A stretch of 64,000 nt of DNA from Fenollaria massiliensis (GTDB lineage Bacteria; Bacillota; Clostridia; Tissierellales; Peptoniphilaceae). The notes beneath the pieces were generated by a model, which made no database searches, was not told where the DNA came from, and saw nothing but the letters and a program-made list of their open reading frames with translations. Shown one piece after another: positions 6,373-53,053 of this stretch (position 1 is the stretch's first letter; every line of letters begins with the position of its first letter). Made by a program: the position numbers and the translations under genes. The stretch lies in the NCBI RefSeq assembly GCF_000312505.2, contig NZ_HG326224.1, positions 124,001 through 188,000 on the forward strand, in the 5' to 3' direction.

Positions 6373-7492
6373 TTATTTAACCCAATTAATAGGGTTTGTG
6401 AAATTACCGTTCTTTCTTACTTCAAAGTGCAAGTGCGCTCCTGTTGAAAATCCAGTTGATCCAACTTTTGCTATCGCTTGACCCTTAGTAACTTTTGCTC
6501 CTTTGCTTTTTAAAAGTCTTGAGCAATGCGCATAACCTGTAACTATCTTTCCACCGTGGTCAACTAAGATTAAGTTACCATATCCACCATACTTGCCAGC
6601 GAAGATAACCGTACCGCTTGCTGCAGCAACAATATTTGTTCCAGTAGGTGCAGGTATATCTATACCCGAGTGTAATCTTCTTATATTAAGTATAGGATGT
6701 GTTCTATAGCCATAGCCAGAACTGATTCTTGTATAACCTGGTAGTGGCCAGCCAAGTTTACCTCCTACAAATTTCTTAGTACTTGATTGAAGTTTAAGTA
6801 TTTGTGCACTAAGATTTCTAGAATCTCTTTCTAATTTTGCAAGACTCTTCTTGGCTTTTTCTATATCATTTTTTTAATATAGTAAATTGTTTTTCTTGTT
6901 CTATCTTTAATTTTGAAACTTCATCTTTTTGACTTGATAGTTTATTTTTATTTTGAACTTGAGTCGTTTTTAGATTTTCTAATGTAGTTTTTATCTTGAC
7001 AATGTTGTCAACTTCGCCTTCTATGCTCTCTATAAGCTTCTTATCCCTCTTAGCCATCTTTTGAACCATGTTTTTCTTGGACAAATAATCATCTAAAGAT
7101 TTTGATGAAAGAAGTACTGTAACATAGTTATCGTCACTGTTCATATACATGCTTCTAAGTCTTTTTCTGAATAAAGAATCATTTTCTTTTAATCTTTCTT
7201 TAGCATCTTCAAGCTCAGAACTTTTTTGAGCTATCTTTTTGTCGGTATCAATTATGGCAGTATTAAGATTAACAATGCTAGTATTAAGTATTGATATATT
7301 GTTACCATATTTTAATATGGTGTTATATACGCTTGTAGACTCTTTTTGTTTTATATTAATCTCAGTTTTAGTATCTTTTATCTTCTTGTCAATATTTTTC
7401 TTTTTGTTCTTTAGCTTTCCTGCTGCAAAAACACTTTGAAAGCTTAGAATTATGATCAATAAAACAATAATAAATCTCTTTCTATTAAACAA
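6373..7492 (-). pseudogene. EnvC-like murein hydrolase activator / M23 peptidase, interrupted by a +1 frameshift
   Basis: Two frames together make one typical protein of about 372 residues. Residues 1-208 carry a signal peptide and a long coiled coil, ending at a TGA at 6866-6868. The M23 (LytM) domain continues in another frame down to the TAA at 6373-6375. That part has HxxxD as HSGID, the terminal HxH as HLHFEV, and GYGYRTHP between strands. The frames meet at seven A residues (6869-6875, minus strand); six would restore one frame. No usable start codon exists for the M23 part alone. It starts at a TTG with an AGGTGA site. FtsEX normally controls exactly such an activator, and ftsX ends 9 bp upstream, so a working gene is expected. 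Sequencing error, true inactivation and slippage remain possible. M23 subdivision (active enzyme or activator) is not settled. Confidence 0.85.
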
Positions 7493-7500
7493 AAAATCAC

Positions 7501-8400
7501 CTATACTTTCAATAACTTCTTCAATGAACCAATGCTGCCAAGCATACCAATACCTACAGCTAATGTAATAAATATTATGCTGAAGTCATCTAATATACTC
7601 TCTGGACTTACAATTGCCTCGTTAAGTAGGCTGCTATTTGAAACTACAATGTATTCGTAGATGTATGAGTAGCCAAATTTCACTACCATTATAGCTAGTA
7701 CAGCTGCAATAAGGCCAATCAATATACCTTCAAAAACATAAGGGCCTGTAATGTAGCTATTTGTAGCCCCAACATATTTCATTATCTCAATTTCTTTCTT
7801 TCTTGAACTAATTGATAATTTTATAGTATTTGATATTAAAAATATTGATATAAATATCAAAGCTACAATCAAACCAAAGCCACCTATTTGCATATACTTA
7901 GATATTTTAAGTAGATGAACTACTTCCTCAGATAAGAATCTTACATCCTCAACACCTGGTATGAGCTTTATATTAGCTGCAACATCGTTTATCTTTTCTA
8001 TATCTTCAACGTTAACTTTAAAAGCATTTGGAAGCGGATTATCTTCTTTGTATTCCTCCAATAAATAGCTTTTGTTCTCCCATTGTTCAAACATACTTTC
8101 AAGGCCTTCATCTTTTGATATAAATTTTACGTTTTTTACCCCGTCTATATCCTTAATCTTGCCTTCAAGTTCCTTAATTCCCGCATCATCAACGCCATCT
8201 AGTAAGAATACCTTAACTTCATTTATCTTTTCTTTAGTATCGCCAACAACTTTATTTACACTTAAAACTATTATTAATACAGTTGAAAGTATTAATAAAA
8301 CCGACAATATTGATATTATCGATGCAAAAGCCATGCTAAAGTGTCTTGCTATCCCTTTAAAACCATCTTTTATAATATTTATCAATTCTCTAGATTTCAC
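7501..8400 (-). CDS. ftsX: Cell-division ABC transporter permease FtsX
   Basis: Integral membrane partner of FtsE. Together they transmit the state of the division ring to an extracellular murein hydrolase activator. About 299 residues with the family layout: one N-terminal membrane helix, a large extracellular domain (about 45-155), then three more helices (about 165-185, 215-240, 265-290). The motif SISSRKKEIEIMKYVGAT is typical. I chose a GTG start at 8400, 11 bp inside ftsE, because AGGTGG stands 8-9 bp before it and family members begin close to the equivalent residue. The longest frame would begin at 8433. Confidence 0.95.
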   Translation of the reverse strand: MKSRELINIIKDGFKGIARHFSMAFASIISILSVLLILSTVLIIVLSVNKVVGDTKEKINEVKVFLLDGVDDAGIKELEGKIKDIDGVKNVKFISKDEGLESMFEQWENKSYLLEEYKEDNPLPNAFKVNVEDIEKINDVAANIKLIPGVEDVRFLSEEVVHLLKISKYMQIGGFGLIVALIFISIFLISNTIKLSISSRKKEIEIMKYVGATNSYITGPYVFEGILIGLIAAVLAIMVVKFGYSYIYEYIVVSNSSLLNEAIVSPESILDDFSIIFITLAVGIGMLGSIGSLKKLLKV

Positions 8401-9073
8401 AGTAATACCCACCTTCATACATATCACTAACAACGCTTCCGTGGTTTAAAGTGATTACTCTTTTCTTCATCTCGTCAACTATGTTTTTAGCATGTGTCGC
8501 CATGACTATGGGTGTGCCTCTATTGTTAATGTCTTGCAATAGATTCATTATCTCCCATGCAGTATCTGAGTCAAGGTTACCTGTTGGTTCATCTGCGATG
8601 ATAACATCAGGTTTATTAACCAAGGCTCTAGCAATGGCTGTCCTTTGGCACTCTCCACCAGATAACTGATGAGGGTAAGATTTTGCTTTATCACTTAAGC
8701 CAACCATGCTTAGTATAATTGGCACACTTCTTCTAATCTCTCTAGGTTTCTTGCCAATGATTTCCATAGCAAATGAAACGTTCTCATAAACAGTTTTATT
8801 AGGCAAAAGTCTAAAATCTTGAAAAACAACGCCTATATATCTTCTGATATAAGGTATCTTTCTATTGCTAACATCTGTAATATCTTCGTTATTTAAATAT
8901 ATCTTGCCGCTTGTGGGCCTAATCTCTTTTAATATTAATTTAGTTAAAGTTGACTTACCTGCTCCAGATGGTCCTATTAAAAATACAAACTCACCCGGTT
9001 TTATATGTAAGTTTATATCGTTTAGAGCAAGGACTTCACCATACTTTTTACTAACGTTTTCTAATCTAATCAA
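8390..9073 (-). CDS. ftsE: Cell-division ATP-binding protein FtsE
   Basis: Cytoplasmic ATPase of the FtsEX complex. Walker A is GPSGAGKST, the ABC signature is LSGGECQR, and Walker B is VIIADEPT. About 227 residues. The most likely start is TTG at 9073, giving a protein that begins with an IRLENVSKKY stretch as in relatives, with AGAGGTG 8 bp upstream. An ATG at 9094 would add seven unfamiliar residues that cover the ribosome site. It is the first gene of the minus-strand run down to uvrA and is divergent from the folate gene at 9169. Confidence 0.95.
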   Translation of the reverse strand: MIRLENVSKKYGEVLALNDINLHIKPGEFVFLIGPSGAGKSTLTKLILKEIRPTSGKIYLNNEDITDVSNRKIPYIRRYIGVVFQDFRLLPNKTVYENVSFAMEIIGKKPREIRRSVPIILSMVGLSDKAKSYPHQLSGGECQRTAIARALVNKPDVIIADEPTGNLDSDTAWEIMNLLQDINNRGTPIVMATHAKNIVDEMKKRVITLNHGSVVSDMYEGGYYCEI

Positions 9074-9105
9074 AAAAATAACACCTCTTGTCATTTATAT
9101 TCATT

Positions 9106-9135
9106 TTGTGGTAAAATATACATATATATTATAAT
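9106..9135 (+). promoter_or_regulatory. Putative promoter for the cyclo-ligase/CofE-like pair
   Basis: TTGTGG at 9106-9111, an 18 bp spacer and a perfect TATAAT at 9130-9135, then 33 bp to the TTG start at 9169, with AAAGGGGG as ribosome site. The AT-rich divergent gap also has to hold the ftsE promoter on the other strand, which I could not place with confidence. Confidence 0.55.
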
Positions 9136-9168
9136 ACAAAACAGATAAAAAATAAAGGGGGAATTTCT

Positions 9169-9744
9169 TTGAATAAGAAAACACTAAGATCTCAGCTCTT
9201 AGAGATAAGAAACAATATCTCCGAAACAGATAGAATTAATAAATCAAAGATAATTATTGATAAATTGATGGCGACTCATGAATATAAAAACGCTACTAAT
9301 ATCATGGCTTTCGCAAGCTTTGGCACTGAAGTTAATACTCATGACTTTATAAAGACAGCGCTTAGTAGCGGCAAGAGAATTATCTTACCTATTTCAATAA
9401 AAGAAGATAGAAGCCTTTTTTTACAAGAAATTACAAATTTTGATGAATTAAAACCATCGACTTATGGTATACTAGAACCGGAGAAGAAAGAAAATTTCGA
9501 TAGAAAAAAACTCGACTTAGTTATAGTTCCTGGTGTTGCCTTTGATCACAGAGGCTTTAGGATGGGCTATGGCGGCGGTTACTACGACAGATTCCTAGCT
9601 TCTCTTGATAAAAGAACTAAGATCGTTGCTATAAATTTTGAAGAGCTTTATGTATATAGAGTTGTTATTAGTAGATTCGATATGAAGGTTCCTGTTCTTA
9701 TAACAGATAGAAAAATTAGAAATTTCCAAAGGAGAGTATTATGA
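9169..9744 (+). CDS. 5-formyltetrahydrofolate cyclo-ligase
   Basis: ATP-dependent conversion of 5-formyl-THF to 5,10-methenyl-THF, a salvage step in one-carbon metabolism. 191 residues, normal length. Visible are the ATP-binding C-terminal motif RMGYGGGYYDRFL (about 128-140), the preceding VPGVAFD, and an N-terminal basic segment with the substrate-binding region. The start is TTG with a strong AAAGGGGG site 8 bp upstream. The stop overlaps the next start as ATGA, so the CofE-like protein is translationally coupled. That suggests the two products act in related chemistry. Confidence 0.95.
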   Translation: MNKKTLRSQLLEIRNNISETDRINKSKIIIDKLMATHEYKNATNIMAFASFGTEVNTHDFIKTALSSGKRIILPISIKEDRSLFLQEITNFDELKPSTYGILEPEKKENFDRKKLDLVIVPGVAFDHRGFRMGYGGGYYDRFLASLDKRTKIVAINFEELYVYRVVISRFDMKVPVLITDRKIRNFQRRVL

Positions 9745-10934
9745 AAAGATATATTGGTACAAATGTAATGGGTTTAAGATGCCCTATAATTACAGCAGAA
9801 GATAATATTGTAGACATCGCTGTAGATACTATATTAAAAGCTAGTGAGGCTGGAAACTTTAAAATCGATGATAGAGATGTTGTTGGTTTAACTGAATCTA
9901 TAGTTGCTAAGTCAATGAATAACTTTGCCACAATTGATGATATAACTAATGATGTTAAAAATAAATTTAACTGTGATGAAGTTGCTCTAATTCACCCTAT
10001 TATGAGCAGAAATAGATTTGCAATTTGCCTAAAAGGTATTGCTAGAGCTTTTAAAAAAGTATATGTTTTATTAAGCTACCCTCACGATGAGGTTGGTAAC
10101 CACCTTTGTGACCCAGATGAGCTTGATAACTTTGACATCAATCCTTATGGAGAAATAATCGAAGAAAAAGAGTTTAAAAAATGCTTTCCTGATACTAGAC
10201 ATATATTTACAAAAGTTGACTACATTGAATATTACAAAGAACTTATTGAAGAAGCTGGTGCAGAAGCAGTTATGCTCTTCGGAAATAATGAAAGAAATGT
10301 ACTAAAATATACTAAAAATATCTTAGTTTGTAGCATACACACTCGCATTAGAACTAAAGAAAAACTTAAAAATGCTGGTGCTGAAAAGATTTTCTGTCTA
10401 TCAGAAATTTTGAATGCTCCTGTCAATGGATCTGGATATAATGAAAAATATGGTCTACTTGGTTCAAACAAATCTACTGAAAACAAAATAAAGCTGTTTC
10501 CAAGGGATTGTGACAATGTCGTATATGCTATACAAGAAAAAATTAAAGAAAAAACTGGCAAAAAGATTGAAGTTCTTGTTTATGGCGATGGTGCATTCAA
10601 AGATCCTATCGGCAAAATCTGGGAACTGGCAGACCCTGTTGTATCCCCTGCCTTTACTGATGGCTTAAAAGGTACACCAAACGAATTAAAACTTAAGTAC
10701 ATCGCTGACAATAGTTTTGCTGGACTTAAAGGCGAAAAGCTAGAAGAAGCTATAAAAGAAAAAATTCATAATAAAGGAAATAACTTAGTTGGTTCAATGG
10801 AATCACAAGGAACAACACCAAGACAATTAACAGACCTTATTGGCTCACTATGTGATTTAACAAGCGGTAGTGGTGATAAAGGCACGCCTATTGTATATAT
10901 AAAGGGTTACTTTGATAATTTCTCAGAAGAATAA
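9741..10934 (+). CDS. CofE-like gamma-glutamyl ligase homologue, substrate unknown
   Basis: A 397-residue protein related to coenzyme F420-0:L-glutamate ligases, with the family's beginning (GTNVMGLRCPII, residues about 6-17), VVGLTESIVAKS (about 47-58), and a C-terminal GDGAFKDP and TSGSGDKGTP. It is longer than archaeal CofE (about 250). Long versions occur in many Firmicutes without any known F420 pathway, and no F420 genes are visible here. Translational coupling to the folate cyclo-ligase makes folyl-polyglutamate or another glutamylated cofactor a possible substrate; this is inference. A terminator follows 14 bp after the stop. Confidence 0.8.
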   Translation: MKRYIGTNVMGLRCPIITAEDNIVDIAVDTILKASEAGNFKIDDRDVVGLTESIVAKSMNNFATIDDITNDVKNKFNCDEVALIHPIMSRNRFAICLKGIARAFKKVYVLLSYPHDEVGNHLCDPDELDNFDINPYGEIIEEKEFKKCFPDTRHIFTKVDYIEYYKELIEEAGAEAVMLFGNNERNVLKYTKNILVCSIHTRIRTKEKLKNAGAEKIFCLSEILNAPVNGSGYNEKYGLLGSNKSTENKIKLFPRDCDNVVYAIQEKIKEKTGKKIEVLVYGDGAFKDPIGKIWELADPVVSPAFTDGLKGTPNELKLKYIADNSFAGLKGEKLEEAIKEKIHNKGNNLVGSMESQGTTPRQLTDLIGSLCDLTSGSGDKGTPIVYIKGYFDNFSEE

Positions 10935-10947
10935 TAAATATAAAATT

Positions 10948-10975
10948 GCTCATATATTCAGTATGAGCTTTTTTT
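10948..10975 (+). terminator. Rho-independent terminator after the CofE-like gene
   Basis: Stem GCTCATA/TATGAGC (10948-10954 with 10962-10968) closed by a seven-base loop and followed by seven T residues. It ends the short plus-strand folate operon. Confidence 0.85.
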
Positions 10976-10986
10976 ACGCATAAAAA

Positions 10987-11020
10987 TACCCTCTCTACTC
11001 GTAATGAGTAAAGAGGGTTT
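10987..11020 (-). terminator. Terminator of the cell-wall polymer/transketolase transcript, usable from both sides
   Basis: A long inverted repeat, ACCCTCTCTACTC paired with GAGTAAAGAGGGT around a short loop, flanked by T-rich sequence on both strands. It lies between the convergent CofE-like and transketolase genes, so it can stop the minus-strand transcript and back up the plus-strand terminator. Confidence 0.85.
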
Positions 11021-11031
11021 TATAATTTTAA

Positions 11032-13011
11032 CTATTTTTCTATAAGTTTGCTTACTTCTTCTTCAACGTGTTCTTTAGTAATTCCGTATTTTTCAAATAA
11101 GACTTTTCCTGGTGCTGATGAACCAAATCTATCGATACCAATTGCAGTACCTTCTAGACCAACAAATCTGCCCCAAGGCATTGTTGAAAGTGCTTCAACT
11201 GATACTCTTCTCTTAACATTTGATGGAAGTATCTTTTCGATATATTCTTTGTCTTGATTTAAGAATATTTCTTGTGATGGCATACTAACAACTCTTATTG
11301 ACTTACCTTTTGCTTCTAAATCCTTAGCTGCTTCTATTGACAAAGCTACTTCTGATCCTGTTGCTATGATTATAGCGTCAATTGCATCTTTTGCTTCTTT
11401 ATGAACTATATAAGCACCTTTTAAAGCTTCTTCTGATGAATTATCAAGAAGTTTTAATCCTTGTCTTGAAAGTATCAAGCATGTTGGTGTTTTTTTGCTA
11501 ATTAAAGCTGCTTGCCAAGCGTAGCAAACTTCTCTTGAGTCAGCAGGTCTAATTACATTGATGTTTGGTATGCTCCTAAGCATTGCTAAGTGCTCTATAG
11601 GTTGATGAGTTGGTCCATCTTCGCCAACGCCTATGCTGTCATGAGTTAATATATATATTGCAGGTAAATTCATTAGTGATGCAAGTCTTATTGATGGCTT
11701 CATATAATCTGAGAAAACTAAGAATGTTGCTGCATAAGATCTTAGTCCGCCATGAAGTAAAATTCCGTTAACAATGGCTCCCATTGCGTGCTCTCTGATA
11801 CCGAAGTGTATGTTTCTTCCTTCTGGACATTCGCTTGAGAAGAATTTTTCATCATTCATAACTGATTTATTTGATGGACCTAGGTCAGCTGATCCGCCCA
11901 TAAGATTTTCTAATACGTGACTTACCTTGTTAAGAACCTTGCCTGATGAGCTTCTTGATGCATCATCTTTTAGTTCTATATCAGTGCAAGCCTTTAGTAC
12001 TTCTTCACTTACTTCTTTATCGTAGAAGCTCATAAGCTTGTCATAATCTGCTTTGTATTTAGCTTTGTATGCTTCTAATTTTTTGTACCAATCTTCTTCA
12101 TATTTTTCTAGCTCTACGCTCTTTTCTTTCATATAATCAAGAACGTCTTTGCTCACATTGAAGCCTTCTTCTTCATATCCAAGATTTTTTCTAAGTGCAG
12201 CAAGTGATTCAGCTCCTAAAGGTGCTCCGTGAGCGTCAGCGCTTCCTTCTTTGCCAGTAGCACCATAACCAATCTTAGTCTTAATCTCAATTAATGTTGG
12301 TTTATCAGTGCTTTTCTTTGCTTCAGCTATAGCCTTCGATATAGCCTCGATATCATTACCATCTTCAACGTATAGAGTGTTCCAGCCAAGTGCTTCATAT
12401 CTTGCTCTAACATTTTCAGTGAAAGCAAATTTTGTATCGCCTTCTATAGTAATGTTATTTGAATCATATAAAACAACTAATTTATTTAGCTTAAGTGTTC
12501 CAGCTAAAGATGATGCTTCATTTGAAATACCTTCTTGTAAGCAGCCATCGCCGCAAAGTATATAAGTCATGTGGTCAATAAGTTTATTGTCATCTTTATT
12601 AAAAATTGCTGCTAAATGCTTTTCGGCCATAGCCATACCAACGCCCATAGCAATGCCTTGACCAAGTGGTCCTGTACTTGCTTCAACGCCCTTTGTATGC
12701 ATATACTCAGGGTGACCTGGTGTAAGTGAGTCAAATTGTCTGAAATTTTCTAAGTCTTCAATCTTTAGTCCATAGCCATATAAATTTAGTAATGAGTATA
12801 GAAGCATTGATCCATGTCCTGCAGATAAGATGAATCTGTCTCTGTTTATCCAATCAGGATTCTTTGGATTGTGCTTTAAGTGCTCATTAAATAATGTAAA
12901 TGCCATTGGCGCTGCTCCTAGTGGCAAACCAGGATGGCCTGAATTAGCTTTTTCAATAGCTTCCGCCGATAATACCCTAATAGTATTTATTGCCTTTTGT
13001 TTAACGTCCAT
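11032..13011 (-). CDS. tkt: Transketolase
   Basis: Thiamine-diphosphate enzyme that transfers two-carbon units between sugar phosphates in the non-oxidative pentose phosphate pathway. Full-length single-chain form of 659 residues. The N-terminal domain has SAGHGSML (about 64) and the ThDP motif GDGCLQEG (about 150). The central part has DLGPSNKS and GIREHAMG, and the C-terminal domain closes with the SAPG motif. Start ATG with AGGAGG. It is the last gene of the minus-strand polymer run, 14 bp after tagA. It may supply pentose or other sugar phosphates, or merely share transcription. Confidence 0.97.
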   Translation of the reverse strand: MDVKQKAINTIRVLSAEAIEKANSGHPGLPLGAAPMAFTLFNEHLKHNPKNPDWINRDRFILSAGHGSMLLYSLLNLYGYGLKIEDLENFRQFDSLTPGHPEYMHTKGVEASTGPLGQGIAMGVGMAMAEKHLAAIFNKDDNKLIDHMTYILCGDGCLQEGISNEASSLAGTLKLNKLVVLYDSNNITIEGDTKFAFTENVRARYEALGWNTLYVEDGNDIEAISKAIAEAKKSTDKPTLIEIKTKIGYGATGKEGSADAHGAPLGAESLAALRKNLGYEEEGFNVSKDVLDYMKEKSVELEKYEEDWYKKLEAYKAKYKADYDKLMSFYDKEVSEEVLKACTDIELKDDASRSSSGKVLNKVSHVLENLMGGSADLGPSNKSVMNDEKFFSSECPEGRNIHFGIREHAMGAIVNGILLHGGLRSYAATFLVFSDYMKPSIRLASLMNLPAIYILTHDSIGVGEDGPTHQPIEHLAMLRSIPNINVIRPADSREVCYAWQAALISKKTPTCLILSRQGLKLLDNSSEEALKGAYIVHKEAKDAIDAIIIATGSEVALSIEAAKDLEAKGKSIRVVSMPSQEIFLNQDKEYIEKILPSNVKRRVSVEALSTMPWGRFVGLEGTAIGIDRFGSSAPGKVLFEKYGITKEHVEEEVSKLIEK

Positions 13012-13025
13012 ATTAACCTCCTATT

Positions 13026-13787
13026 TCAATTTATATACTCTACTGCGTTTTTTGTAAAAATTATCTTCATTAAAAATCTTGGTATGTCCAGTTGTCTTTT
13101 AAATCGTTTAGGTTCCTTTATGAGTCTATACAGCCATTCCATACCTATCTTTCTTATAAAAGCTGGCGCTATCTTGACATTGCCAGCTAATACATCTATG
13201 ACACCGCCATTAGCAATTGCAAGCCTTGAATTAATTTTGTCTTTATTATAATAGATAAATTTTTCTTGATAGCCCGCTCCCATACCTACAAAGATGGCGT
13301 CCGCCTTTGAATCATTTATCTTTTTTATCAAAGCTTCTTCTTCATCGCAAGATGAATTGCCATTGTGACTGCCTTTAAAATATCCGTTGTTATAGCCTGC
13401 TACGACTATGTTTGGATAATCATGATTAATCTTCTCTATAGCTTTCTCAGCTATGCCAGGCTTAGCTCCTAACAAAAACAGTGAGAGACCTTTTTCGTTC
13501 ATTAGCTCCAAAATCTTGATAGATGTGTCATAGCCTGTAACTCTTGATTTTAGCGGCTTTTTCTTTAATTTTGATGCTATCATTAGACCAATTCCATCGC
13601 ATAAATTTAGTGATGCTGAGTTAATTATTTCTTTAAATTCATCATCTCTTCCAGCTCTCATAACTATCTCTGGATTTGGTGTGTAAATATAATTAAGTTT
13701 ATCATTATCAAAAAATTCATTAATCTTCGCAATGGTTTCTGACATGTCAATATTATTTATTCTTACACCTAAAATTTTAATGTCCAT
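13026..13787 (-). CDS. tagA: WecG/TagA/CpsF-family glycosyltransferase
   Basis: Membrane-associated transferase. The family adds N-acetylmannosamine or its uronic acid to undecaprenyl-PP-GlcNAc in teichoic-acid-like polymers. About 253 residues. The conserved Thr is in YTPNPEIVM (about 34) and the catalytic-type Asp in LNLCDGIGLM (about 62); GMGAGYQEKFI follows near 180. I prefer ATG 13787 over 13796, because AAAGGATG lies upstream and the product then starts MDIKILGV as in relatives. It overlaps the csaB fusion by 11 bp. Next to wecC, a ManNAcA donor is plausible. Confidence 0.92.
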   Translation of the reverse strand: MDIKILGVRINNIDMSETIAKINEFFDNDKLNYIYTPNPEIVMRAGRDDEFKEIINSASLNLCDGIGLMIASKLKKKPLKSRVTGYDTSIKILELMNEKGLSLFLLGAKPGIAEKAIEKINHDYPNIVVAGYNNGYFKGSHNGNSSCDEEEALIKKINDSKADAIFVGMGAGYQEKFIYYNKDKINSRLAIANGGVIDVLAGNVKIAPAFIRKIGMEWLYRLIKEPKRFKRQLDIPRFLMKIIFTKNAVEYIN

Positions 13788-15971
13788 AAGCATCATCCTT
13801 TAAAAGTTCTAGTGCAAGCTTGCTTGCTTCTATTGCTTTTTTCTTATTTTCTTCATTAATAGAACTTAATTTATTTATAAAATCTATTCTATTATTGCTA
13901 ATGTATTCATATGCCTTGATTAAATCATAATAATTAATACCATCTACGTCAATATTTATGCTCTCATCAAAATCTTTTAGAAGCGTCTCGGTCTTTGGAT
14001 CATAAGAAAGTCCAATAAATGGCAAGTTTTGATGAATTGCATATATCATAGCGTGTAGTCTCATAGCAACGATAAAATCAGCGTTTTTCATAAGATTCAT
14101 AAGTATTTCAACTGGATATTTTTCATCGATTATCTTGCTTGATTTTAAATTTGCTGCAATTTTTTCTGATATAGTCGTATCTCTTGGCATCTGCATTGGC
14201 ATGAAAACAATATTTTTTCCTTGATCAATAAGATAATTTAAAAATTTAACTAGCTCATCTATAAGTTTTTCGTCATTCATCCATGACCTAACCGAAACTA
14301 AAACTGTATCTTTATTTATATCAAATTTCTCACGAATACTTTCATCACTTGCCTCTTTTAGATTAAAGACTGGATCTGATAAAACTTTTACATTTTGATT
14401 ATTGACCCCAATTGATTTAATGAAATTATATGAATCAATATCTCTGAGCGTGATATAATCTACTTTATTAAGTACTCTTCTTGTGAAATTTCTGTTGAAT
14501 TTTTTATTTATCGGTCCAACACCATTCGAATAAACAAAAACTTTTTTCTTATAGTGCTTAGCAAGCTTCATTATTAATAAATAGTACCAAATTGATCTGG
14601 AACTTGTCTTGTCTTGTAAGAGGCTTCCGCCGCCGCTTATAAGCATGTCAGACGCTTTAATGCTCTTAATTACATCAAAGAGCTTAAATCTATCAACAGC
14701 TGAAACACCATATTCCTTCTCAGTTAGACTTGGATCCTTTGACAGTACTTTTATATTTAGATTTGGATCCAAGGCTTTAAAAGACTCAAGTATTGACTTT
14801 AGTATAGCATCATCGCCTGAGTTTGAAAAACCAAAGTAGCCTGACATAATAACATGCTTTGCTAGAATCTTCTTATAAATTTCTACGTGCTTCTCAGCCA
14901 TCTTTATATGAGTGAAATTATCAATGATTCTAGTATATAAATTTTCACCAAGTTTTTTACGCTCATCAGCATTATTTTTTAGCTTAAGTATATCTGCAGC
15001 AAGAGCCTTATAATCTTGCTTTTCAAATAGCTTTCCTGTTTCGCCATCTAAAATTATCTTAGGTATGCCGCCAACTCTTGACGCTATAGTAGCTTTTTTA
15101 AGTGAGCCACCCTCCATTATGACATAAGGAAATGATTCACTTAAGCTGCATAAAACGTTTATATCAATCGCATTCAGAAAATCATATGGATGAGTCTCGT
15201 TGCCTAAGAAATAAACATTTTGCTCTAAGCCTAAATCTTTTCTTAAGCTTAATAAATGCTCTTTATCTTGACCATCGCCTGCAAGTAAAAATATGACAGA
15301 TTTATCTTTATCAATCACTTCTTTTGCCGCTCTTAGAAATGTTTCATGGTCTTTAACTTTGTCAAGTCTAGCTAGTATGCCAACTATAAACTTATCCTTG
15401 TAATCAATATTTTTCTCTTTTAAATAGCTTTCTTTATCTTTTATTATTTTATCTTCTAAAAATATACCATTGTATATAGTAAATATCTTATCCTTATCAA
15501 AGCCTCTACTTACAAGCATGTCCTTGAAACTATCAGAAACAGCTATGTAATTATCAAATCTTTTTAAGGCAAACTTATTAAGATTAGTAAAAACTATATT
15601 TTTATAAAAATTATCTTTAAAATCTAATAAATAATCGCTGTGAACAGTAGTTATGAACTTGGCATTAACTTTTTCTTTAAAAAGTAGCTTATAAGATTAG
15701 CTCTTGCACCATGTGAGTGAACTATCTCAAAACCTTCACTCTCAATGAGATCTTTAAGCTTATTAACTACAGAAAAATCAAATCTGCTTCTTTGTTCGAT
15801 AACTTCTACATCTATGCCGTATTTTTTTAGATCATCAGCAAAGGGCCCTTTGATAAAGCAAACTAATTTTACATCAACTTTATCTTTTAAACCGCAAAGC
15901 AAATTTATGATGTGAGTCTTGGCTCCGCCAGTATCTCCGCCACTAATTAGATGAAGTACTTTCATAATCAA
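13777..15971 (-). pseudogene. csaB: Glycosyltransferase-CsaB (polysaccharide pyruvyl transferase) fusion with a frameshift near its start
   Basis: Residues 1-105 (from 15971) are the N-terminal half of a GT-B glycosyltransferase, with SGGDTGGAKTH and HSHGARANL. That frame stops at 15651-15653. The second frame carries the rest of the same domain (TTVHSDYLL, AVSDSF, LEQNVYFLGN, MEGGSLKKA), and then a full CsaB domain from about residue 375 of the joined protein (MSGYFGFSNSGDDAIL, SGGGSLLQD, AMRLHAMIYA). The frames meet at five A residues (15670-15674, minus strand); six would restore a protein of about 731 residues. CsaB adds ketal pyruvate to wall polymers, creating the ligand of SLH domains. 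If translation begins only at a downstream start, the CsaB domain could still be made. An error in the read, true mutation and slippage are the alternatives. Confidence 0.85.
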
Positions 15972-17478
15972 TTCCTTTGTTTCTTAATCCCATGATTAGT
16001 GCTGCATACATAACAAAATATATAATCATAGCTGGGAACTCAAAAATATTTTCTACAGAATTTTGTATTAAAACACCTAATGCGCCGCAAAATAGTCCGC
16101 ATGCTAATATTTTGTTATCTAAATTCTTTTGAGTGAATACAACTTTTAATGTAGATATTAAAAATCCAAGTATCATAAAGCCAATCGCGCATACGCCATA
16201 GTAACCTGTTTCAACCAAGGTCTTTAAATAATAATTATCTAAGTAGAATGGTGATAAATCATTGTTTATAGCAACTGCTCCGCCATATCTACCAAGGCCA
16301 ACGCCCCAAAATTTATGCTTTGACCAAACTTTTAAACCTATAGTCCATCTATAGATTCTTCCGCCACTAGCTGATTTAAACATATATTCTGGTGTAAGCA
16401 TATATAAAAGTCTTGTTGATAATGAATTTCCTGAGACTATAAATAAAGAGCCAAGTATTACAAATGGAGTTAATACTCTAACGTTTGTAAATAAAATGAA
16501 TACAAGCATAGCTAATGCAAAAGCTATCCACGCTCCTCTTGAGTATGTTAATAACAAACCTAAAAGCATTACCATAGTCTCGATAAAATATACTGCTTTA
16601 AGCTTTTTATTCTTTTCAATTAAAAATAATGATATTACCAATGGTAAAATTAATACAAATATAACACCAAGTATATTAGGCGAACCAACTATAGAAAAGG
16701 CTCTTACCTTTATCGATTCGCTTGAGTCTATCCAATTGCCTGGCATTTTCACTTTAAATATAAATTGATATATGGCATGAAGACCAAGTAAAAATCCGCC
16801 ATGCGATATAAATTTTGACACAGTCTTGACAATATCTTCACTTGTGAAGAATTGCGCAAAAATGTAGTACCACAAAACATGTTGAAACATTGCTCTAAAG
16901 CCTTCTATAGCTATCTTAGTGTTTGGTTGAACTACAAGTACATGTATTATTCCTAGAATAAAATATATAGCTAGAACAAAACCAAATGGAGTGAAATTAT
17001 ACTTAATGCTGCCATTTGAGTTCATTCTTCTCATTGCTAGATAAAAAATCATAAATAAGAAATAAAATTCATCCCAATAGTTTGCAAATGAGCTAAGTCC
17101 AGGAATTTTTCTGATAATGTAGTCAGTAAATATATAAAAAACTAATACTAAGACAAAAATAAAGCCAAAGTATTTTACACCTGTTAGCTTAATAAAGCCC
17201 TTGTAAATGATTGACTCATGAAATGAATTATTAAATTTATCTACTAAAACATAAATAAAGCTATCTCTATAAACCTTGTTAAGCTTTTTATAAAAGATAG
17301 ACATCTTCATGTCAATCTTATTTAATAACTTATATAAAAAGCTTCCCTTTAGACTGTCACTATAAGTCCTTTGCTTGTATTGAGGCTTAGTATAGTCAAA
17401 TAGAAAGCTTGATCTAAGTAGAGAAAGTATATAGACATATAATCTATATAAAAAACTCTCTTTGAATAGTTTTTCCAT
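15943..17478 (-). CDS. O-antigen ligase/polymerase-like membrane protein
   Basis: A polytopic protein of about 511 residues with a basic, Tyr-rich N-terminal segment of about 95 residues and then roughly ten to eleven membrane helices. The Wzy/WaaL-type signature YSRGAWIAF lies near residue 315, followed by a large external loop containing GRIYRWTIG and GVGLGRYGG. Members polymerise or ligate lipid-linked glycans outside the membrane. It overlaps the glycosyltransferase-csaB gene by 29 bp and follows two DUF4330 genes. The start is either TTG 17487 or ATG 17478; neither has a strong ribosome site. I give the ATG. Confidence 0.85.
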   Translation of the reverse strand: MEKLFKESFLYRLYVYILSLLRSSFLFDYTKPQYKQRTYSDSLKGSFLYKLLNKIDMKMSIFYKKLNKVYRDSFIYVLVDKFNNSFHESIIYKGFIKLTGVKYFGFIFVLVLVFYIFTDYIIRKIPGLSSFANYWDEFYFLFMIFYLAMRRMNSNGSIKYNFTPFGFVLAIYFILGIIHVLVVQPNTKIAIEGFRAMFQHVLWYYIFAQFFTSEDIVKTVSKFISHGGFLLGLHAIYQFIFKVKMPGNWIDSSESIKVRAFSIVGSPNILGVIFVLILPLVISLFLIEKNKKLKAVYFIETMVMLLGLLLTYSRGAWIAFALAMLVFILFTNVRVLTPFVILGSLFIVSGNSLSTRLLYMLTPEYMFKSASGGRIYRWTIGLKVWSKHKFWGVGLGRYGGAVAINNDLSPFYLDNYYLKTLVETGYYGVCAIGFMILGFLISTLKVVFTQKNLDNKILACGLFCGALGVLIQNSVENIFEFPAMIIYFVMYAALIMGLRNKGIDYESTSSN

Positions 17479-17479
17479 C

Positions 17480-17974
17480 TTAATCAACTTTCTTTCTATC
17501 AGCTATAAGAGCGCTAAGTCTGTAGTTATCAGACTCTAAGAATATTGTTGAGCCAAGTCTTAGCTCTTGCTTGCCAAATTTAAGTGAATTGCTTACATTA
17601 GAAAAATTACCTTCTATAGTAACTACAGTTTTTTCCTTAAGTGGATCAATCACTTTTTTAATCTCACCATTGTTATCAACTGTGTTTACGTAGTAGTCTT
17701 CTCTCTTGACATCTTTAACAAAGATATCGAAGTGATTTTTCATCTCTCCTAGTTGATCGCCAATTCTTATGCAATCAGTATTGCCTTTATTTTCATATAA
17801 ATAAAGTGTTGCCTCATACTTTTCAGTAGTTTTACCTAAAGTTATATCAGCTACATCTTTTCTCATTAGTTTAAGTGAAGCAAAGAAAACTAAGCCTATT
17901 ACAATCAATACTGCTAATATATCTAATAAACTTATTTTGCCAAATAATCTTAATTTATTATCTATTATTTTCAT
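17480..17974 (-). CDS. DUF4330-family protein, second copy
   Basis: 164 residues: a short cytoplasmic N-terminus with the motif LFGKISLLDILAVL, one membrane helix (about 15-38), then an extracellular beta-rich domain. This matches my recollection of DUF4330, a family of unknown function often found beside polysaccharide genes. It overlaps the upstream DUF4330 gene by 17 bp and the following ligase gene by a few bases, so all are probably made together. The paired arrangement suggests a heteromeric membrane accessory of polymer assembly; no activity can be assigned. Confidence 0.75.
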   Translation of the reverse strand: MKIIDNKLRLFGKISLLDILAVLIVIGLVFFASLKLMRKDVADITLGKTTEKYEATLYLYENKGNTDCIRIGDQLGEMKNHFDIFVKDVKREDYYVNTVDNNGEIKKVIDPLKEKTVVTIEGNFSNVSNSLKFGKQELRLGSTIFLESDNYRLSALIADRKKVD

Positions 17975-18440
17975 CTACTTCCTCCACATTTGTTATATAG
18001 CCAAGATATGCGTGGTCTTTTGTTTTAACGTACATATCAACGCCTGCTTTTATCTCTTGTCCACCTAAAGACATGTATGGTCCTGTATAGTTAACATTTG
18101 CCTTAATCCTAACTATAGGGTTAACAAATTCTGCGTCATCAACAACGATTATATCGCCATTAGTCTTTACCAATTCATTCTTTCTAGCTTGAATATCAAC
18201 GCTAATAATTTCTCCGTCTTGAAATGTTTCTTGAGCGAATAATTTATCTCCCGGCTTTAAATCTTTGATTGAATCTCTAGTAATATTATCTTTAGCTTCT
18301 GCTGTGATTATAACTGTTCTTTTTGCCTCTTTACCTATGCTTGACTTAATGTTCTTTCTGTTTATAAGTAAAAATACAAGTAATAACAATATTAATATAA
18401 TAAATATATCAAATATATTTATCTTGAATTTCTTCTTCAT
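17958..18440 (-). CDS. DUF4330-family protein, first copy
   Basis: 160 residues with a Lys-rich start, one membrane helix (about 9-26) and an extracellular domain predicted to be mostly strands. It shares the layout of the next gene (IFDIFIILILL against LLDILAVLIVI; then a VxITxEAK-type strand and a GGQEIKAG/FGKQELRLG-like turn). The two copies are diverged paralogues in tandem. It starts immediately after the glycosyltransferase stop, with GGAGGAATAAATG giving a strong ribosome site. Function unknown. Confidence 0.75.
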   Translation of the reverse strand: MKKKFKINIFDIFIILILLLLVFLLINRKNIKSSIGKEAKRTVIITAEAKDNITRDSIKDLKPGDKLFAQETFQDGEIISVDIQARKNELVKTNGDIIVVDDAEFVNPIVRIKANVNYTGPYMSLGGQEIKAGVDMYVKTKDHAYLGYITNVEEVDENNR

Positions 18441-19688
18441 TTATTCCTCCAAAATTTTGTTTATAATGTTATTAAGCTCTTCTGCTTGTGCCTCTCTTGA
18501 ATATTTTTTGATAAGCTCTTTATCGCCATAATAATTATTCTCGCTCTTATAGTTTTCATATAGCTTCATTATGGCGTTTTTAATCTCTCTAGTCTCACCC
18601 GGCTCAGCGACTATACCCGTCTTTGTCTCTTCTATAAGCTCTCCTGCTGCTCCGTGCTTTGGAACTATGGCTAAAATATTTTTATAAGCTCTTAGATATT
18701 CAAAAACTTTTCCTGTATAAAAATTCTCAGAACCTTTGCCCTTACCTATTAAAAGCAAAAGTACGTCTGCCTCAAGAAGTTTTCTTATTGATTCTTCATG
18801 AGCTAGATAAGATAAATAATTAATTTCTTTTTCTAAATTATAAGTCTTTTTATACTCTTCTATCTGAGAGTCCTTTACATTGCCAGCTATATTTATCCTA
18901 ATATCGCCCTTATCAATTTTGCCTTCATCAATAAGCTCTTTCAAAGCTGATAAAAATTCATGCAAATTTCTTCTGCCATATAAAGCGCCTGTGTGAATAA
19001 AGGTGAATTTATCGCTCTTTTCTTTTGGATATATGCCTAAAAAGTCCTCTTCATCGTAACCATTGGGTATATATGTGGACTTGCCCTTAAGCTCAGGCAA
19101 ATCAGCAATAAAATTATCAAGCATAAATCTAGTATTTGTAATGAAATAATCGCATTTATAATTTATTTCAAGCTCAGTCTTTTTTGATAATTTCATCTTT
19201 ATTCTTGATGAAAAGCTATCTAGGTGGAATGGATTATTCGTCCACTCATCTCTATAGTCGACTATCCACTTCATCTTAGGAAATTTCTCTTTTAGATACA
19301 ATCCAAATAAATGTGCTGAATAAGGATAACTTGTAGTATATATAACATCTGGATTAAATTCTAGAGCTATCTTTTCAATCTCTTTTTTATTAAATTTATA
19401 CCAAAAAACTTCAGCATCTGGAAGCGCAAAAAACTTAGCATAGACTTTTTTAATAAGACCGCTATTGTTAATGTCATGTGCCTTAAGTCTGATGACTCTC
19501 ACATTTTCAGGAACATCATTTAATAAGCTGTCATCTTTTAAGTCTTTGCTAGCATCTTTTGATACGACTAAGACTTCATTGCCGAGCCTTGATAGATACT
19601 TTACAAATTTTAAACTTCTTTGCACACCACTTCCACCTATTGGCGGGAATTGATTTGCAATAAATAATATCTTACTCAAGTTCTCCAC
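18441..19688 (-). CDS. Glycosyltransferase, GT4-like (WbuB type)
   Basis: GT-B fold transferase of 415 residues. The N-terminal domain has FPPIGGSGVQRSLKF (about 14-28), a donor/acceptor cleft motif YTTSYPYSAHLFG and the linker IPNGYDEEDF (about 215). The C-terminal domain has FIHTGALYGRRNL, and EYLRAYKNILAI near 325 in place of the classic EX7E region. It probably adds one sugar to the lipid-linked wall polymer. It starts at GTG 19688 or TTG 19679 inside the last codons of wecC, so the two are coupled. The sugar cannot be read from the sequence. Confidence 0.88.
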   Translation of the reverse strand: MENLSKILFIANQFPPIGGSGVQRSLKFVKYLSRLGNEVLVVSKDASKDLKDDSLLNDVPENVRVIRLKAHDINNSGLIKKVYAKFFALPDAEVFWYKFNKKEIEKIALEFNPDVIYTTSYPYSAHLFGLYLKEKFPKMKWIVDYRDEWTNNPFHLDSFSSRIKMKLSKKTELEINYKCDYFITNTRFMLDNFIADLPELKGKSTYIPNGYDEEDFLGIYPKEKSDKFTFIHTGALYGRRNLHEFLSALKELIDEGKIDKGDIRINIAGNVKDSQIEEYKKTYNLEKEINYLSYLAHEESIRKLLEADVLLLLIGKGKGSENFYTGKVFEYLRAYKNILAIVPKHGAAGELIEETKTGIVAEPGETREIKNAIMKLYENYKSENNYYGDKELIKKYSREAQAEELNNIINKILEE

Positions 19689-20941
19689 TACCCAATAAAT
19701 AATAATTAAATCCTAGTTCTTCAACTTTTTCTCTATCAATAAAGTTTCTTGTGTCAAAAATATTCTTTTTATTCATAACTTTCTTTATTTCTTTATAGTC
19801 AAGAACTTGGAATTGACTATGATTTACGCCTAAAACCAATAAATCTGCACCTGTAATTACTTCTCTAATATCACCATAAAGTTCATTAAATTCAAGTATT
19901 TGATCGTTTTTGAATGGATCATAAACAGCTACATTATAATCATCATTTAGTAAAGCAATAAGATGAGTTATTGGACTTTCTCTAAAGTCATCAATATTTG
20001 GCTTAAATGATGAGCCAAGTATAGCTATCTTAGAGCCTTTTTCAACTATCTTCTTTATCTTATCGGCTGTAAATTTAGGCATAGAGTCATTTATATCTCT
20101 TGCTTGATGAATTAGTTTCGAATTTTCTTTATCCGCTGTTACCAAGAACCATGGATCTACTGAAATACAATGTCCGCCAACTCCTGGTCCAGGAGTATGA
20201 ACATTTACTCTTGGATGTTTATTAGCTAATTCAATTAGTTCCCATACATTTACACCTAGTGTATCACATATCTTAAGCATTTCATTTGCAAGAGCAATAT
20301 TTACATCTCTAAATGTGTTTTCAAGTAATTTACATACTTCAGCTGTAGTTGCATCTGTTGTAAATACTTCTGCGTCAACAAATGTCTTATATACATCTCT
20401 AACGATTTCAGCAGATTTTTTGTCAACACCGCCCACTACTCTATGGTTATTTTTAAGCTCATATAAAATATTTCCTGGAATAACTCTTTCAGGACTGTGG
20501 GCTAAATATATGTCTTCAGACACTTTTAAGCCAGACTTTTCAAGTATAGGCTTAACAACATCTTCTGTAGTACGTGGTGGAGATGTTGATTCTAAGACAA
20601 CTGTATCGCCTTTCTTAAGAACTTTTAAAACATCGTGACATGCATCCTTAATATATTTTAAATCGCAACTCTTGTCTTCATTAAAAGGTGTTCCAACACA
20701 GATGATATACATATCAGCTTCATGAATCCTATCTGAAACCTCTATCTTACCCTCTTCTATAGCTTTGTCTAAAATTTCTTTAAGACCTGGTTCATCAATC
20801 TCCAAAGTTCCATTCTTAATCTTTTCGATTTTTTTCTTTTATTGGATCATATCCAAATACTTTGAAATGATCACTTAATATTGTGGCTGTTGGTAAGCCA
20901 ATATATCCTAATCCTAATACGGAAATGGTTTTAATACTCAT
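19672..20941 (-). pseudogene. wecC: UDP-N-acetyl-D-mannosamine dehydrogenase (WecC-like), frameshifted
   Basis: NAD-dependent oxidation of UDP-ManNAc to UDP-ManNAcA, or a close nucleotide-sugar dehydrogenase. The N-terminal Rossmann motif VLGLGYIGLPTA (residues 8-19) is in a frame that begins at ATG 20941 after GGAGG and stops about 32 codons later. The remaining 377 residues lie in another frame: ICVGTPF, LAHSPERVIPG, catalytic Cys in GVGGHCISVDPWF, and ILGSSFKPNIDDFRESP. The frames join at seven A residues (20829-20835, minus strand); six would give one 422-residue protein. Without the Rossmann start the enzyme should be inactive. The signature residues fit WecC better than UDP-glucose dehydrogenase. 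Error, mutation and slippage are all possible. Confidence 0.88.
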
Positions 20942-32671: not shown

Positions 32672-33148
32672 CTATTTATATTGAGTGTACTCATCTCTGA
32701 TATTTTTGATTTCACTAGTAATAGCGTCAACGTCTAATACCATTTCCATCATGCCTATTTGTTCGTCATAAACACCTGCATCTACACTTTCCTTAAATTC
32801 AGGTTCTAATGCATGGTATACCTTAAGTCCCAACGAGACTCCGGCTAAAGGACCAGCCCATGTAGGGTCACCTGCTGTAACAGTTTCAGCTGCTAAGCCT
32901 GCTGTTTCAGCTTCTCCTCCACCAAGTAAAACTATGATGTTTTCTGCACCGTATTTATCTACGGCTTCTTTTACTCTGTTTTGGTTTTCTAGGTCCATAG
33001 CGCCTGCAGCTGTTCAGACAAAACACTCAGTAGCTGAGAATACAACTTCTGCTGGAGTTGTCTTTACACACTCTTCCATAGCAGGACCAGGAATACCGTC
33101 TCTGTCGCCAATTATAACAACTTTTGAATTTTCATTAAATATTGACAT
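32672..33148 (-). CDS. grdA: Glycine reductase complex selenoprotein A (GrdA), with in-frame UGA at 33014-33016
   Basis: Small selenoprotein that carries the carboxymethyl group from protein B to protein C and is then reduced by thioredoxin. 158 residues if the TGA is selenocysteine at about residue 45. The context is [14 protein letters not shown], which has the C-x-x-U redox motif. Before it stand [18 protein letters not shown]; after it [17 protein letters not shown]. Start ATG 33148 with AAAGGAGAG. Conventional gene-finding would see only the 108 residues after the UGA. Downstream of this UGA I find only a weak stem-loop. Confidence 0.97.
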
Positions 33149-33193
33149 TCAAAAACTCTCCTTTCCTTTTTTAATTTTAAAATTTTTAATTAA

Positions 33194-42651: not shown

Positions 42652-42664
42652 AATACCCTTCCTT

Positions 42665-50716: not shown

Positions 50717-51666
50717 TAATCAAATATCGAGCTTATTGATTCGTTGTTATGAATTCTTTCGATTGCCTTAGCTAGTTGATCAGCTATGCTTACAACTTTA
50801 ATCTTGTCAGTAACGTTACCAATGTTTAGTGGTATTGTATCTGTAATTATAAACTCTTCAAGCTTACTAGAGATAAGTCTTTCAATAGCTGGTCCAGATA
50901 GTACACCGTGAGTTGCGCAGCCATAAACCTTCTTTGCTCCACCCTTTTCAGTTAAATATTCAGCTGCATGGCAAATAGTTCCTGCTGTATCTATGATGTC
51001 ATCAACTAAGATACAAGTTTTGCCTTCAACGTCACCTATAACGTTCATAACTTCTGATACGTTTGGCTTTGGTCTTCTCTTTTCAATTATAGCGATAGGA
51101 GCGTCTAATTCATTAGCAAAATTTCTTGCACGAGTAACTCCACCAAGGTCTGGTGAAACTACTACTACATCTTCTAGATTTAATGTCTTGAAGTATTCTG
51201 CTAAATGCTTGATAGCTGATAGATGGTCTACTGGTATATCAAAGTAGCCTTGGATTTGTCCTGCATGAAGATCCATAAGAACTGCTCTATCTGCTCCTGC
51301 TTTTTCAATTAGATTAGCAACTAGTTTAGCTGTGATTGGTTCTCTTGGTTTAGTCTTTCTGTCTTGTCTTGCGTATCCATAGTATGGAATAACAGCGTTG
51401 ATTCTGCCAGCTGAAGCTCTCTTGCATGCGTCTATCATGATTAAAAGCTCCATAAGGTTATCGTTAACTGGTTCATGAGTTGGTTGAACGATAAATACGT
51501 CAGCGCCTCTTACTGTTTCTTTGATATTTACAGCTATTTCTCCATCTGAGAAATGTGTAACTTCAGAATCAATAAGCTCTGCACCTAAGTGCTTGCATAC
51601 ATCTTTTGCTAATTGTCTATTAGCGTTTCCTGTTAAAACTTTTAGTTGTCCTAGAAATGAATTCAT
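50716..51666 (-). CDS. prs: Ribose-phosphate pyrophosphokinase
   Basis: Makes PRPP for nucleotide, histidine and tryptophan synthesis. 316 residues. [15 protein letters not shown] (about 60), [10 protein letters not shown] (about 97), [12 protein letters not shown] (about 167) and the PRPP loop [14 protein letters not shown] (about 215) are all present. GGAGGAAG precedes the ATG. The gene begins 47 bp before the end of glmU, in another frame. Confidence 0.98.
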
Positions 51667-53053
51667 TTTTCTTCCTCCATATTTTTTTATTTTTTACCCA
51701 ATCTATCTTATCAACTTGTCTAGCTCTTGCTATTGACAAAGAATCCTTTTTAACTTCTGTTATTATGGTTGAGCCAGCAGCTACATAGGCGTTCTCACCT
51801 ATGGCAACTGGTGCAACTAAATTAGAATTGCTGCCTATAAAGGCATTATCTTCTACTTTTGATCTGTATTTATTCTTTCCATCATAGTTTGCAAAGATTA
51901 CGCCGCAGCCGATATTTACATTGCTGCCAACATCTGCGTCGCCCACATACGCTAAATGACCAGCTTTCGTGCCATCGCCTAAGCTAGCATTTTTTATTTC
52001 AACAAAGTTACCAACTTTACAATCTTTGCCAATTTTTGAATTTGGTCTAAGGTGTGCGTTTGGTCCTACCTTTGTCCTCTCATCAATAAATGAGTCTTCA
52101 ATCAATGAGCTCTCTATAGTAACTCCTTTTGCTATATGTGAATTATTTATCCTAGTGTAGCCATATATCTTTACATTATCTTCAATAATCGTATTTCCTT
52201 CAAGTATAACGTCTGGATATATCTCTACGTCTCTGCCAATTTTAACATTTTCTTCTATATATACATTGGATGGATTTTTAAAGTAAACACCTTCTATCAT
52301 CCATTTTGTAATAATTTTCTTTCTTACAATTTCTTCAATTTTGGATAAATCTAATTGATTGTTAACACCTAGAGCAATATTTTGATCATCGCTTATATAT
52401 GCATCAACCTTTTTATTTTTACTCAATAGATAAGCAACAGCATCGGTTAGATAATATTCTTTTTTAACGTTATCATTCTTCAAATTATTTATTGCGTCTA
52501 AAAAATCTTTGCCCTTGAAGCAATAAATTCCTGAATTAACTTCTTTTATCTTAAGCTCCTCATCGTTTGCATCTTTTTGCTCAACTATCTTAGTAAGATT
52601 ATTATCTTTATCTCTGACAATTCTGCCATAACCATCACAATTGTCTAAGATGGCGCTTAATATAGTCATGTTATTATCGTTGTCTTTATGAAATTTAAGA
52701 AAATCTTTTAATATCTCTTCGTCAACCAGTGGTGTGTCTCCAAAAATAACTAATACGTTATCATCATTTTTTATATGGCCCTTGGCAAGTGATGCTGCAT
52801 AACCAGTGCCATAAGGCTCACCTGGCCCCATTTTTTGTTCGATAAACTCTATGCTTTTATCTGAAGAAAATTCTTCGATAACCTTATCTTTGTTGTTGCC
52901 AACAATTAAATATCTCTTGTCAAAGCCAGCTCTTTCAGTCGCATCTAAAACATACTTTAACATTGCCTTTCCGTTTATCTTGTGCAAGACCTTAATCAGA
53001 GATGATTTCATTCTAGAGCCTTCGCCAGCTGCTAGAATTATAGCTTGATTCAT
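51620..53053 (-). CDS. glmU: Bifunctional UDP-GlcNAc pyrophosphorylase / glucosamine-1-phosphate acetyltransferase
   Basis: Last two steps to UDP-GlcNAc, precursor of peptidoglycan and wall polymers. About 477 residues. The uridylyltransferase domain starts [10 protein letters not shown] and has PLVDEEIL and NSGIYCFKG. The left-handed beta-helix acetyltransferase domain (from about 250) has [12 protein letters not shown] and [17 protein letters not shown] use ATG 53053, which overlaps the MATE stop (TAATG); ATG 53074 would translate its ribosome site. The C-terminus runs about 16 residues past the usual end into prs. Confidence 0.96.

What the first reader, a model, noticed from the sequence alone, without database searches (positions are those of the whole stretch)
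6373..20941. Three single-base frameshifts, all at A-tracts in cell-envelope genes, all one base from A6
The EnvC-like gene (A7 at 6869-6875), the glycosyltransferase-CsaB gene (A5 at 15670-15674) and wecC (A7 at 20829-20835) each break into two frames that together make one complete protein. Each would be mended by exactly six A. All other genes in the window, including mfd with an intact A8 run, are unbroken. Plain sequencing or assembly error in homopolymers is the leading explanation. The confinement to envelope genes makes slipped-strand phase variation, or transcriptional slippage that yields a mixed protein pool, worth testing.
Basis: partly seen in the sequence, partly recalled or inferred. 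Interest (0 to 1): 0.6.

Follow-up and report, generated by a model that had tools for sequence, protein, structure and literature searches.

The report
Sequencing errors mimicking broken genes
Three cell-envelope genes look broken by one letter each beside runs of A, but many other kinds of genes in this genome are broken the same way while a sister species' copies are not, which points to ordinary DNA-sequencing error and not to gene switching.

Summary
In detail: the EnvC-like, glycosyltransferase-CsaB and wecC-like genes each change frame once at or beside an A-run. All three are unbroken in the sister species Fenollaria timonensis. The "envelope only" pattern is local to this window. In 532 kb of the same genome I count 17 mid-gene breaks among 455 comparable genes, 14 outside the window, including rho, grpE, prmC, ackA and purH; the reverse test gives 0 among 456. 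The window's three match that background (1.9 expected). 14 of 17 breaks have a run of five or more nearby, against 12% of random coding positions. The three genes' overall dN/dS is ordinary. The genome is 1,709,677 bp; the published F. massiliensis type-strain genome is 1,709,674 bp, made mainly by 454 pyrosequencing at 19.7x, whose known weakness is A/T homopolymer indels. Best reading: 454 consensus errors. Phase variation and transcriptional slippage are not supported. No reads or second strain were available, so this is very likely, not proven.

The parts
6866..7492 (-). 5' piece of the EnvC-like (PcsB coiled-coil + M23 peptidase) gene, first frame
   Evidence: ORF of 208 aa; Pfam CC_PcsB on this piece; tblastn match to residues 1-222 of the 372-aa sister protein
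6376..6936 (-). 3' piece of the EnvC-like gene, second frame, holding the M23 peptidase end (upper limit approximate, overlaps the break)
   Evidence: tblastn residues 191-372 of the sister protein; M23 domain at 273-367 of the sister protein
6869..6875 (-). A7 run (coding strand) at the EnvC frame break
   Evidence: sequence; alignment with sister
15651..15971 (-). 5' piece of the glycosyltransferase-CsaB fusion gene
   Evidence: ORF 106 aa; Pfam Glyco_transf_4; residues 1-102 of the 731-aa sister protein
13777..15687 (-). 3' piece of the glycosyltransferase-CsaB gene (upper limit approximate)
   Evidence: residues 96/99-731 of the sister protein; Pfam Glycos_transf_1 and PS_pyruv_trans; sister protein over the NCBIfam CsaB cut-off
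15670..15674 (-). A5 run at the CsaB frame break; longest run in the sister's short context here is three
   Evidence: sequence
20822..20941 (-). 5' piece of the wecC-like nucleotide-sugar dehydrogenase gene
   Evidence: residues 1-40 of the 422-aa sister protein
19672..20838 (-). 3' piece of the wecC-like gene (upper limit approximate)
   Evidence: residues 35-422 of the sister protein; Pfam UDPG_MGDP_dh domains; sister protein over the TIGR03026 cut-off
20829..20840 (-). two neighbouring A-runs (7 and 4) within which the wecC frame changes; exact place ambiguous
   Evidence: sequence; alignments
51620..51690 (-). 3' end of the glmU-like gene: likely a further one-base run-length difference, reading on into the start of the next gene
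   Evidence: alignment with sister; the name glmU is recalled from the sequence, not scanned

Best explanation
The three frame breaks are consensus errors in the deposited assembly, not features of the living organism. The window belongs to a genome that is almost certainly the Fenollaria massiliensis type-strain assembly, made mainly by 454 pyrosequencing at about 20-fold depth. Pyrosequencing reads a run of identical bases as one light signal and miscounts it (established knowledge), most often in A/T runs, so in a low-G+C genome a few percent of genes come out with a spurious gain or loss. Three such genes fall in this window, in a stretch (about 5-23 kb) that holds several envelope genes. 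Shown here: the frame breaks; 17 of 455 comparable genes broken in the sampled third of the genome, in many functional classes; none found in the sister; association with homopolymers; ordinary selection on the three genes. Inferred: that the held assembly is the 454 one, and that accurate reads would show unbroken genes.
For: Background rate: 17 mid-gene breaks of 455 genes in 532,128 bp of this genome (all of C1, most of C4), 0 of 456 in the reverse test; Fisher p about 6e-6. They include rho, grpE, prmC, ackA, purH, tlyA, rnfB, lgt, yifB, sepF, cbiG-like, precorrin-6A reductase, an FAD enzyme and a radical-SAM gene. The window is not special: 14 breaks outside it predict 1.9 inside, 3 seen, P about 0.3. 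14 of 17 have a run of 5 or more in the surrounding 18-20 bases, against 11.9% of random 18-base coding stretches, binomial p about 5e-11. dN/dS of the three genes 0.071, 0.050 and 0.047 against a median of 0.055 in 359 intact genes; 3' pieces 0.061, 0.047 and 0.042. Genome size 1,709,677 against 1,709,674 in the paper describing 454 GS FLX Titanium, 19.7x, Newbler (PMC4148993, passages). My G+C estimate from sampled contigs, worked out by hand, is about 34.7%; the paper's table and abstract give 34.46%. PMC3277595 (passages): in its 454 assembly homopolymer errors hit 2.1-2.8% of genes, biased to A/T, with more expected at low G+C.
Against: No reads and no second strain of the same species were available. 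SOLiD reads helped to improve that assembly, which should have removed some errors. Three of 17 breaks (prmC, tlyA, radical-SAM gene) are at no run of four or more here, and ackA differs by two bases, so not every break is a textbook homopolymer error. The 5' piece of wecC is too short to judge (dN/dS 0.27 on 81 bases), and a few other broken genes lie near the top of the intact range (prmC 0.139, grpE 0.129; 95% limit 0.130). Some of the 14 breaks at runs could be real mutations.
Confidence: 0.95

Rival explanations
1. Slipped-strand phase variation: the A-runs change length during replication and switch the three envelope genes on and off.
For: The runs lie inside coding sequence, and the genes concern envelope sugars and peptidoglycan, usual targets of phase variation (general knowledge). 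The 3' pieces remain conserved, as a reversible switch would require. EnvC is also split in a third Fenollaria genome.
Against: Runs of 5-7 are ordinary here: 1278 A5, 625 A6, 160 A7 and 12 A8 in 296 ORFs of at least 150 aa in C1 (ORFs not filtered for overlap). The same kind of break hits rho, grpE, prmC, ackA and purH. The CsaB run is absent from the sister. In G002 the EnvC break is at about residue 110, not 191-222, in a stretch where 20 of 100 comparable genes are split, so that assembly looks noisy.
Confidence: 0.02
2. Transcriptional slippage: RNA polymerase stutters on the A-runs and makes a mixed pool containing full-length protein.
For: A-runs with conserved downstream pieces. Slippage rescue is known in bacteria: an 11-A run in Citrobacter tssM (PMC4256274, outline and abstract). 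Passages of PMC6260861 describe slippage by E. coli polymerase also around runs as short as five A and seven T, so short runs do not exclude low-level slippage.
Against: Three of 17 breaks have no run of four or more to slip on. The runs at breaks, at most 7, are no longer than hundreds of others in the same contig. It would have to serve rho, grpE, prmC, ackA and purH too.
Confidence: 0.01
3. True recent pseudogenes: real one-base mutations in the sequenced isolate, for example from culture or from a mutator lineage.
For: Frame breaks without further decay fit very recent mutation.
Against: 17 genes, several of them usually essential or central (rho, grpE, prmC, ackA, purH), would be lost at once. 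mutS is present and open over 850 aa, and the sister's mutL-like ORF (name recalled) is not among the split genes here. The A/T-run signature is that of 454 error.
Confidence: 0.02

Closest known systems
Artificial frameshifts in Roche 454 assemblies (PMC3277595, passages read)
   Same: A/T-run bias; a few percent of genes hit; worse at low G+C
   Different: That study is on a lake metagenome (2.1-2.8% of genes) and isolates, and allows 20% or more for low-G+C genomes; here 3.7% of comparable genes, 3 of 17 breaks not at runs, and one of two bases
Homopolymer phase variation of surface genes (general knowledge, recalled)
   Same: Length change in a coding run shifts the frame of envelope genes
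   Different: Usually longer tracts in contingency genes; here runs of 5-7 and breaks in housekeeping genes too
Transcriptional slippage rescue, e.g. C. rodentium tssM (PMC4256274, outline and abstract)
   Same: Gene interrupted at a poly-A run
   Different: Run of 11 there; at most 7 here, and three breaks with no run of four

Membership tests
454 homopolymer consensus error | Breaks spread over many functional classes at a few percent of genes | tested here: met
   17 of 455 comparable genes (3.7%) in 532 kb, mostly not envelope
454 homopolymer consensus error | Breaks concentrated at A/T runs | tested here: met
   14 of 17 with a run of 5 or more in the surrounding 18-20 bases against 11.9% background; 3 of 17 not at runs
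454 homopolymer consensus error | Assembly made with 454 reads | tested here: inconclusive
454 homopolymer consensus error | Raw reads or independent sequence of the species disagree with the consensus | not testable with these tools
   No reads at hand; no second F. massiliensis genome was found (one search returned one locus, from F. timonensis)
Slipped-strand phase variation | Unusually long tract in contingency genes only | tested here: not met
   Runs of 5-7, common in the contig; housekeeping genes broken too
Slipped-strand phase variation | Length differs among cells or isolates of one species | not testable with these tools
   One genome per species held
Transcriptional slippage | Uninterrupted A or T run at the frame change | tested here: inconclusive
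   Runs of 5-7 at the three sites, but 3 of 17 breaks have no run of four or more; short runs can slip to some degree (PMC6260861, passages)
Transcriptional slippage | Mixed run lengths in RNA | not testable with these tools
   No RNA reads
Pseudogene | Relaxed selection or further decay downstream | tested here: not met
   3' pieces dN/dS 0.061, 0.047, 0.042 against intact median 0.055

The most novel reading that the evidence does not exclude
One of the three, most plausibly the EnvC-like peptidoglycan hydrolase next to ftsX- and ftsE-like genes, is truly phase-variable in Fenollaria: it is split in two of the three genus members examined, at different places, while the third keeps it whole. 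Cell separation would then switch on and off. The other breaks would still be sequencing error.
Probability: 0.02. Interest if true: 0.45.

Novelty: not a real feature. Interest (0 to 1): 0.05.

Why it matters
It matters as a caution. About 4% of the comparable genes in the sampled third of this assembly appear broken, probably by artefact, so claims of gene loss, pseudogenes or phase variation from it should be checked against the independent PacBio genome of the species. It also shows that a pattern seen in one window (envelope genes only) can vanish once more of the genome is counted.

Tried and rejected
Envelope confinement: rejected after the wider survey.

Rows dropped before the count: one search listed 19 split genes in this genome (12 in C1, 7 in C4). 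I dropped two: the queG/kbl junction (two separate genes here, one fused ORF in the sister) and an RluA-family ORF whose break at residue 51 lies before the family matches, which begin at residue 52 or later (odd dN/dS of its first piece). In the reverse test one search listed 4 rows (3+1): one ORF that lies antisense to a GrdA-like gene (window 32934-33335), one that I judged antisense from its letters alone, one apparent 5' extension, and the glmU-like 3' end, which I read as a difference at a gene end in this genome; none is counted as a mid-gene break in the sister. One search, without the overlap filter, listed 15 and 5 rows.

Mutator lineage: mutS found open.

Third species G002: its 120-kb stretch has 20 of 100 comparable genes split (25 rows, not curated, one of them queG/kbl), so it was not used as a reference. 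Its GT-CsaB copy is matched almost whole, with one TGA counted; no wecC match was found in it.

Same-species comparison was not possible: the one genome-contig scan returned a single locus, from F. timonensis, and warned that records very near the window's genome may be left out. Papers: the listings were seen as listings; passages or outlines were read of PMC4148993, PMC9302094, PMC3277595, PMC4256274 and PMC6260861.

Limits of the counts: gap placement in the alignments is not unique; only 29 of the window's ORFs were scanned with Pfam.

Full report
What was checked. The three runs and frame changes are in the sequence as described. The window is bases 124001-188000 of contig C1 of a 1,709,677-base, 7-contig genome. 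Its nearest held relative, G001, is Fenollaria timonensis GD5 (its contig C8 has the same length as the named record), collinear with the window at 84-88% DNA identity. Aligned with it, the window shows three net mid-gene frame changes: in the EnvC-like gene, the glycosyltransferase-CsaB fusion gene and the wecC-like gene. All three are open over their whole length in F. timonensis. Family scans of the sister copies name them: M23 peptidase with PcsB coiled coil; CsaB pyruvyl transferase fused to a glycosyltransferase; nucleotide-sugar dehydrogenase.

The 'six A' regularity. The sister has a run of six at the EnvC site, no run over three in the short context of the CsaB site, and at wecC the difference may sit at either of two adjacent runs. 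Any frame break beside a run will look one base away from some length, so three cases near six carry little weight.

Background rate. I took the whole of contig C1 (360,128 bases, including the window) and 172,000 bases of C4, and compared them with 530,000 bases of F. timonensis contig C8 by translated search in both directions. Of 455 sister ORFs with a counterpart here (294 + 161), 19 were split; after dropping two that are not breaks inside a gene (see Tried and rejected), 17 remain: 11 in C1 and 6 in C4. In reverse, of 456 ORFs (293 + 163), 4 rows were listed and none is a convincing mid-gene break in F. timonensis. The 17 are prmC, tlyA, an aminoacetone-oxidase-family FAD enzyme, EnvC-like, GT-CsaB, wecC-like, lgt, a TIGR03960 radical-SAM gene, rnfB-like, rho, grpE, cbiG-like, precorrin-6A reductase, sepF, ackA, yifB and purH. 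Three to five can be called envelope-related, depending on whether lgt and sepF are counted. The 14 outside the window predict 1.9 inside; three are seen (P about 0.3). The window is therefore not unusual. That its three are all envelope genes is less surprising because about 5-23 kb holds several: ftsX-like, a WecG/TagA-type glycosyltransferase, an O-antigen-ligase-like gene, a further glycosyltransferase and alanine racemase, beside unrelated genes such as transketolase.

Signature. 14 of 17 breaks have a run of five or more in the surrounding 18-20 bases, against 11.9% of random 18-base coding stretches; prmC, tlyA and the radical-SAM gene do not. By the alignments six are gains and eleven losses; the ackA case is two bases. 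Equal and longer runs are common: 160 A7 and 12 A8 on the coding strand of 296 ORFs in C1.

Selection. Counting each piece away from the break, dN/dS is 0.071 (EnvC-like), 0.050 (GT-CsaB) and 0.047 (wecC-like), against a median of 0.055 (5-95%: 0.021-0.130) in 359 intact genes; the 3' pieces alone give 0.061, 0.047 and 0.042. The 5' piece of wecC (81 bases) is too short to judge (0.27). Among the other 14, values run from 0.022 to 0.139, with prmC just above and grpE just below the 95% limit. The three genes do not look like decayed pseudogenes.

Source of the assembly. The description of F. massiliensis type strain 9401234 (PMC4148993; outline and passages) gives 454 GS FLX Titanium, one 3-kb paired-end library, 19.7x, Newbler 2.6, with SOLiD reads used to improve the assembly, and a size of 1,709,674 bases at 34.46% G+C (one sentence says 36.47%). 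The held genome is three bases longer, and from sampled contigs (lengths) I estimate about 34.7% G+C. The contig count differs (7 held; 8 scaffolds and 11 contigs in the paper). That they are the same assembly is an inference, but a strong one. A comparison of platforms (PMC3277595; passages) found homopolymer errors in 2.1-2.8% of genes of a 454 metagenome assembly, biased to A and T, and says that low-G+C genomes may have 20% or more of genes affected. The 3.7% seen here lies between.

Rivals. Phase variation would predict unusually long tracts in contingency genes. Slippage is known at an 11-A run (Citrobacter tssM, PMC4256274, abstract), and at lower level around shorter runs (PMC6260861, passages), so run length alone does not exclude it, but three breaks have no run of four or more. 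A mutator would require real loss of rho, grpE, prmC, ackA and purH together, and mutS is open. None fits the whole set. One loose end: EnvC is also split in G002, but at another place and in a stretch where 20 of 100 comparable genes are split, so that assembly looks noisy too.

Verdict. It is best explained by pyrosequencing consensus error. What could not be done is to look at reads or a second genome of the species.

Noticed in passing
   Followed up: yes
window 41461-43561 (-): queG and a BioF/Kbl-family gene are two ORFs here but read as one 699-aa ORF in F. timonensis; whether that is a real fusion or an error in the sister is open.
   Followed up: partly
   Followed up: partly
window 31327-32640 and 32672-33130 (-): Glycine reductase selenoproteins: the GrdB gene (Pfam GRDB) reads through one TGA at residue 351, and a GrdA-like stretch (name recalled) has one TGA; ORF listing cuts both at TGA. 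Known kind.
   Followed up: partly
window 10946-10955: F. timonensis carries about 6 kb at a point where the two flanking stretches are adjacent here.
   Followed up: no
window 17480-18440 (-): Two neighbouring DUF4330 genes of unknown function sit among polysaccharide genes.
   Followed up: no
G000:C1:195684-196951 (outside the window): A 1.27-kb element with seven matches at 91-94% identity in the 350-kb sister stretch, perhaps an insertion sequence.
   Followed up: no
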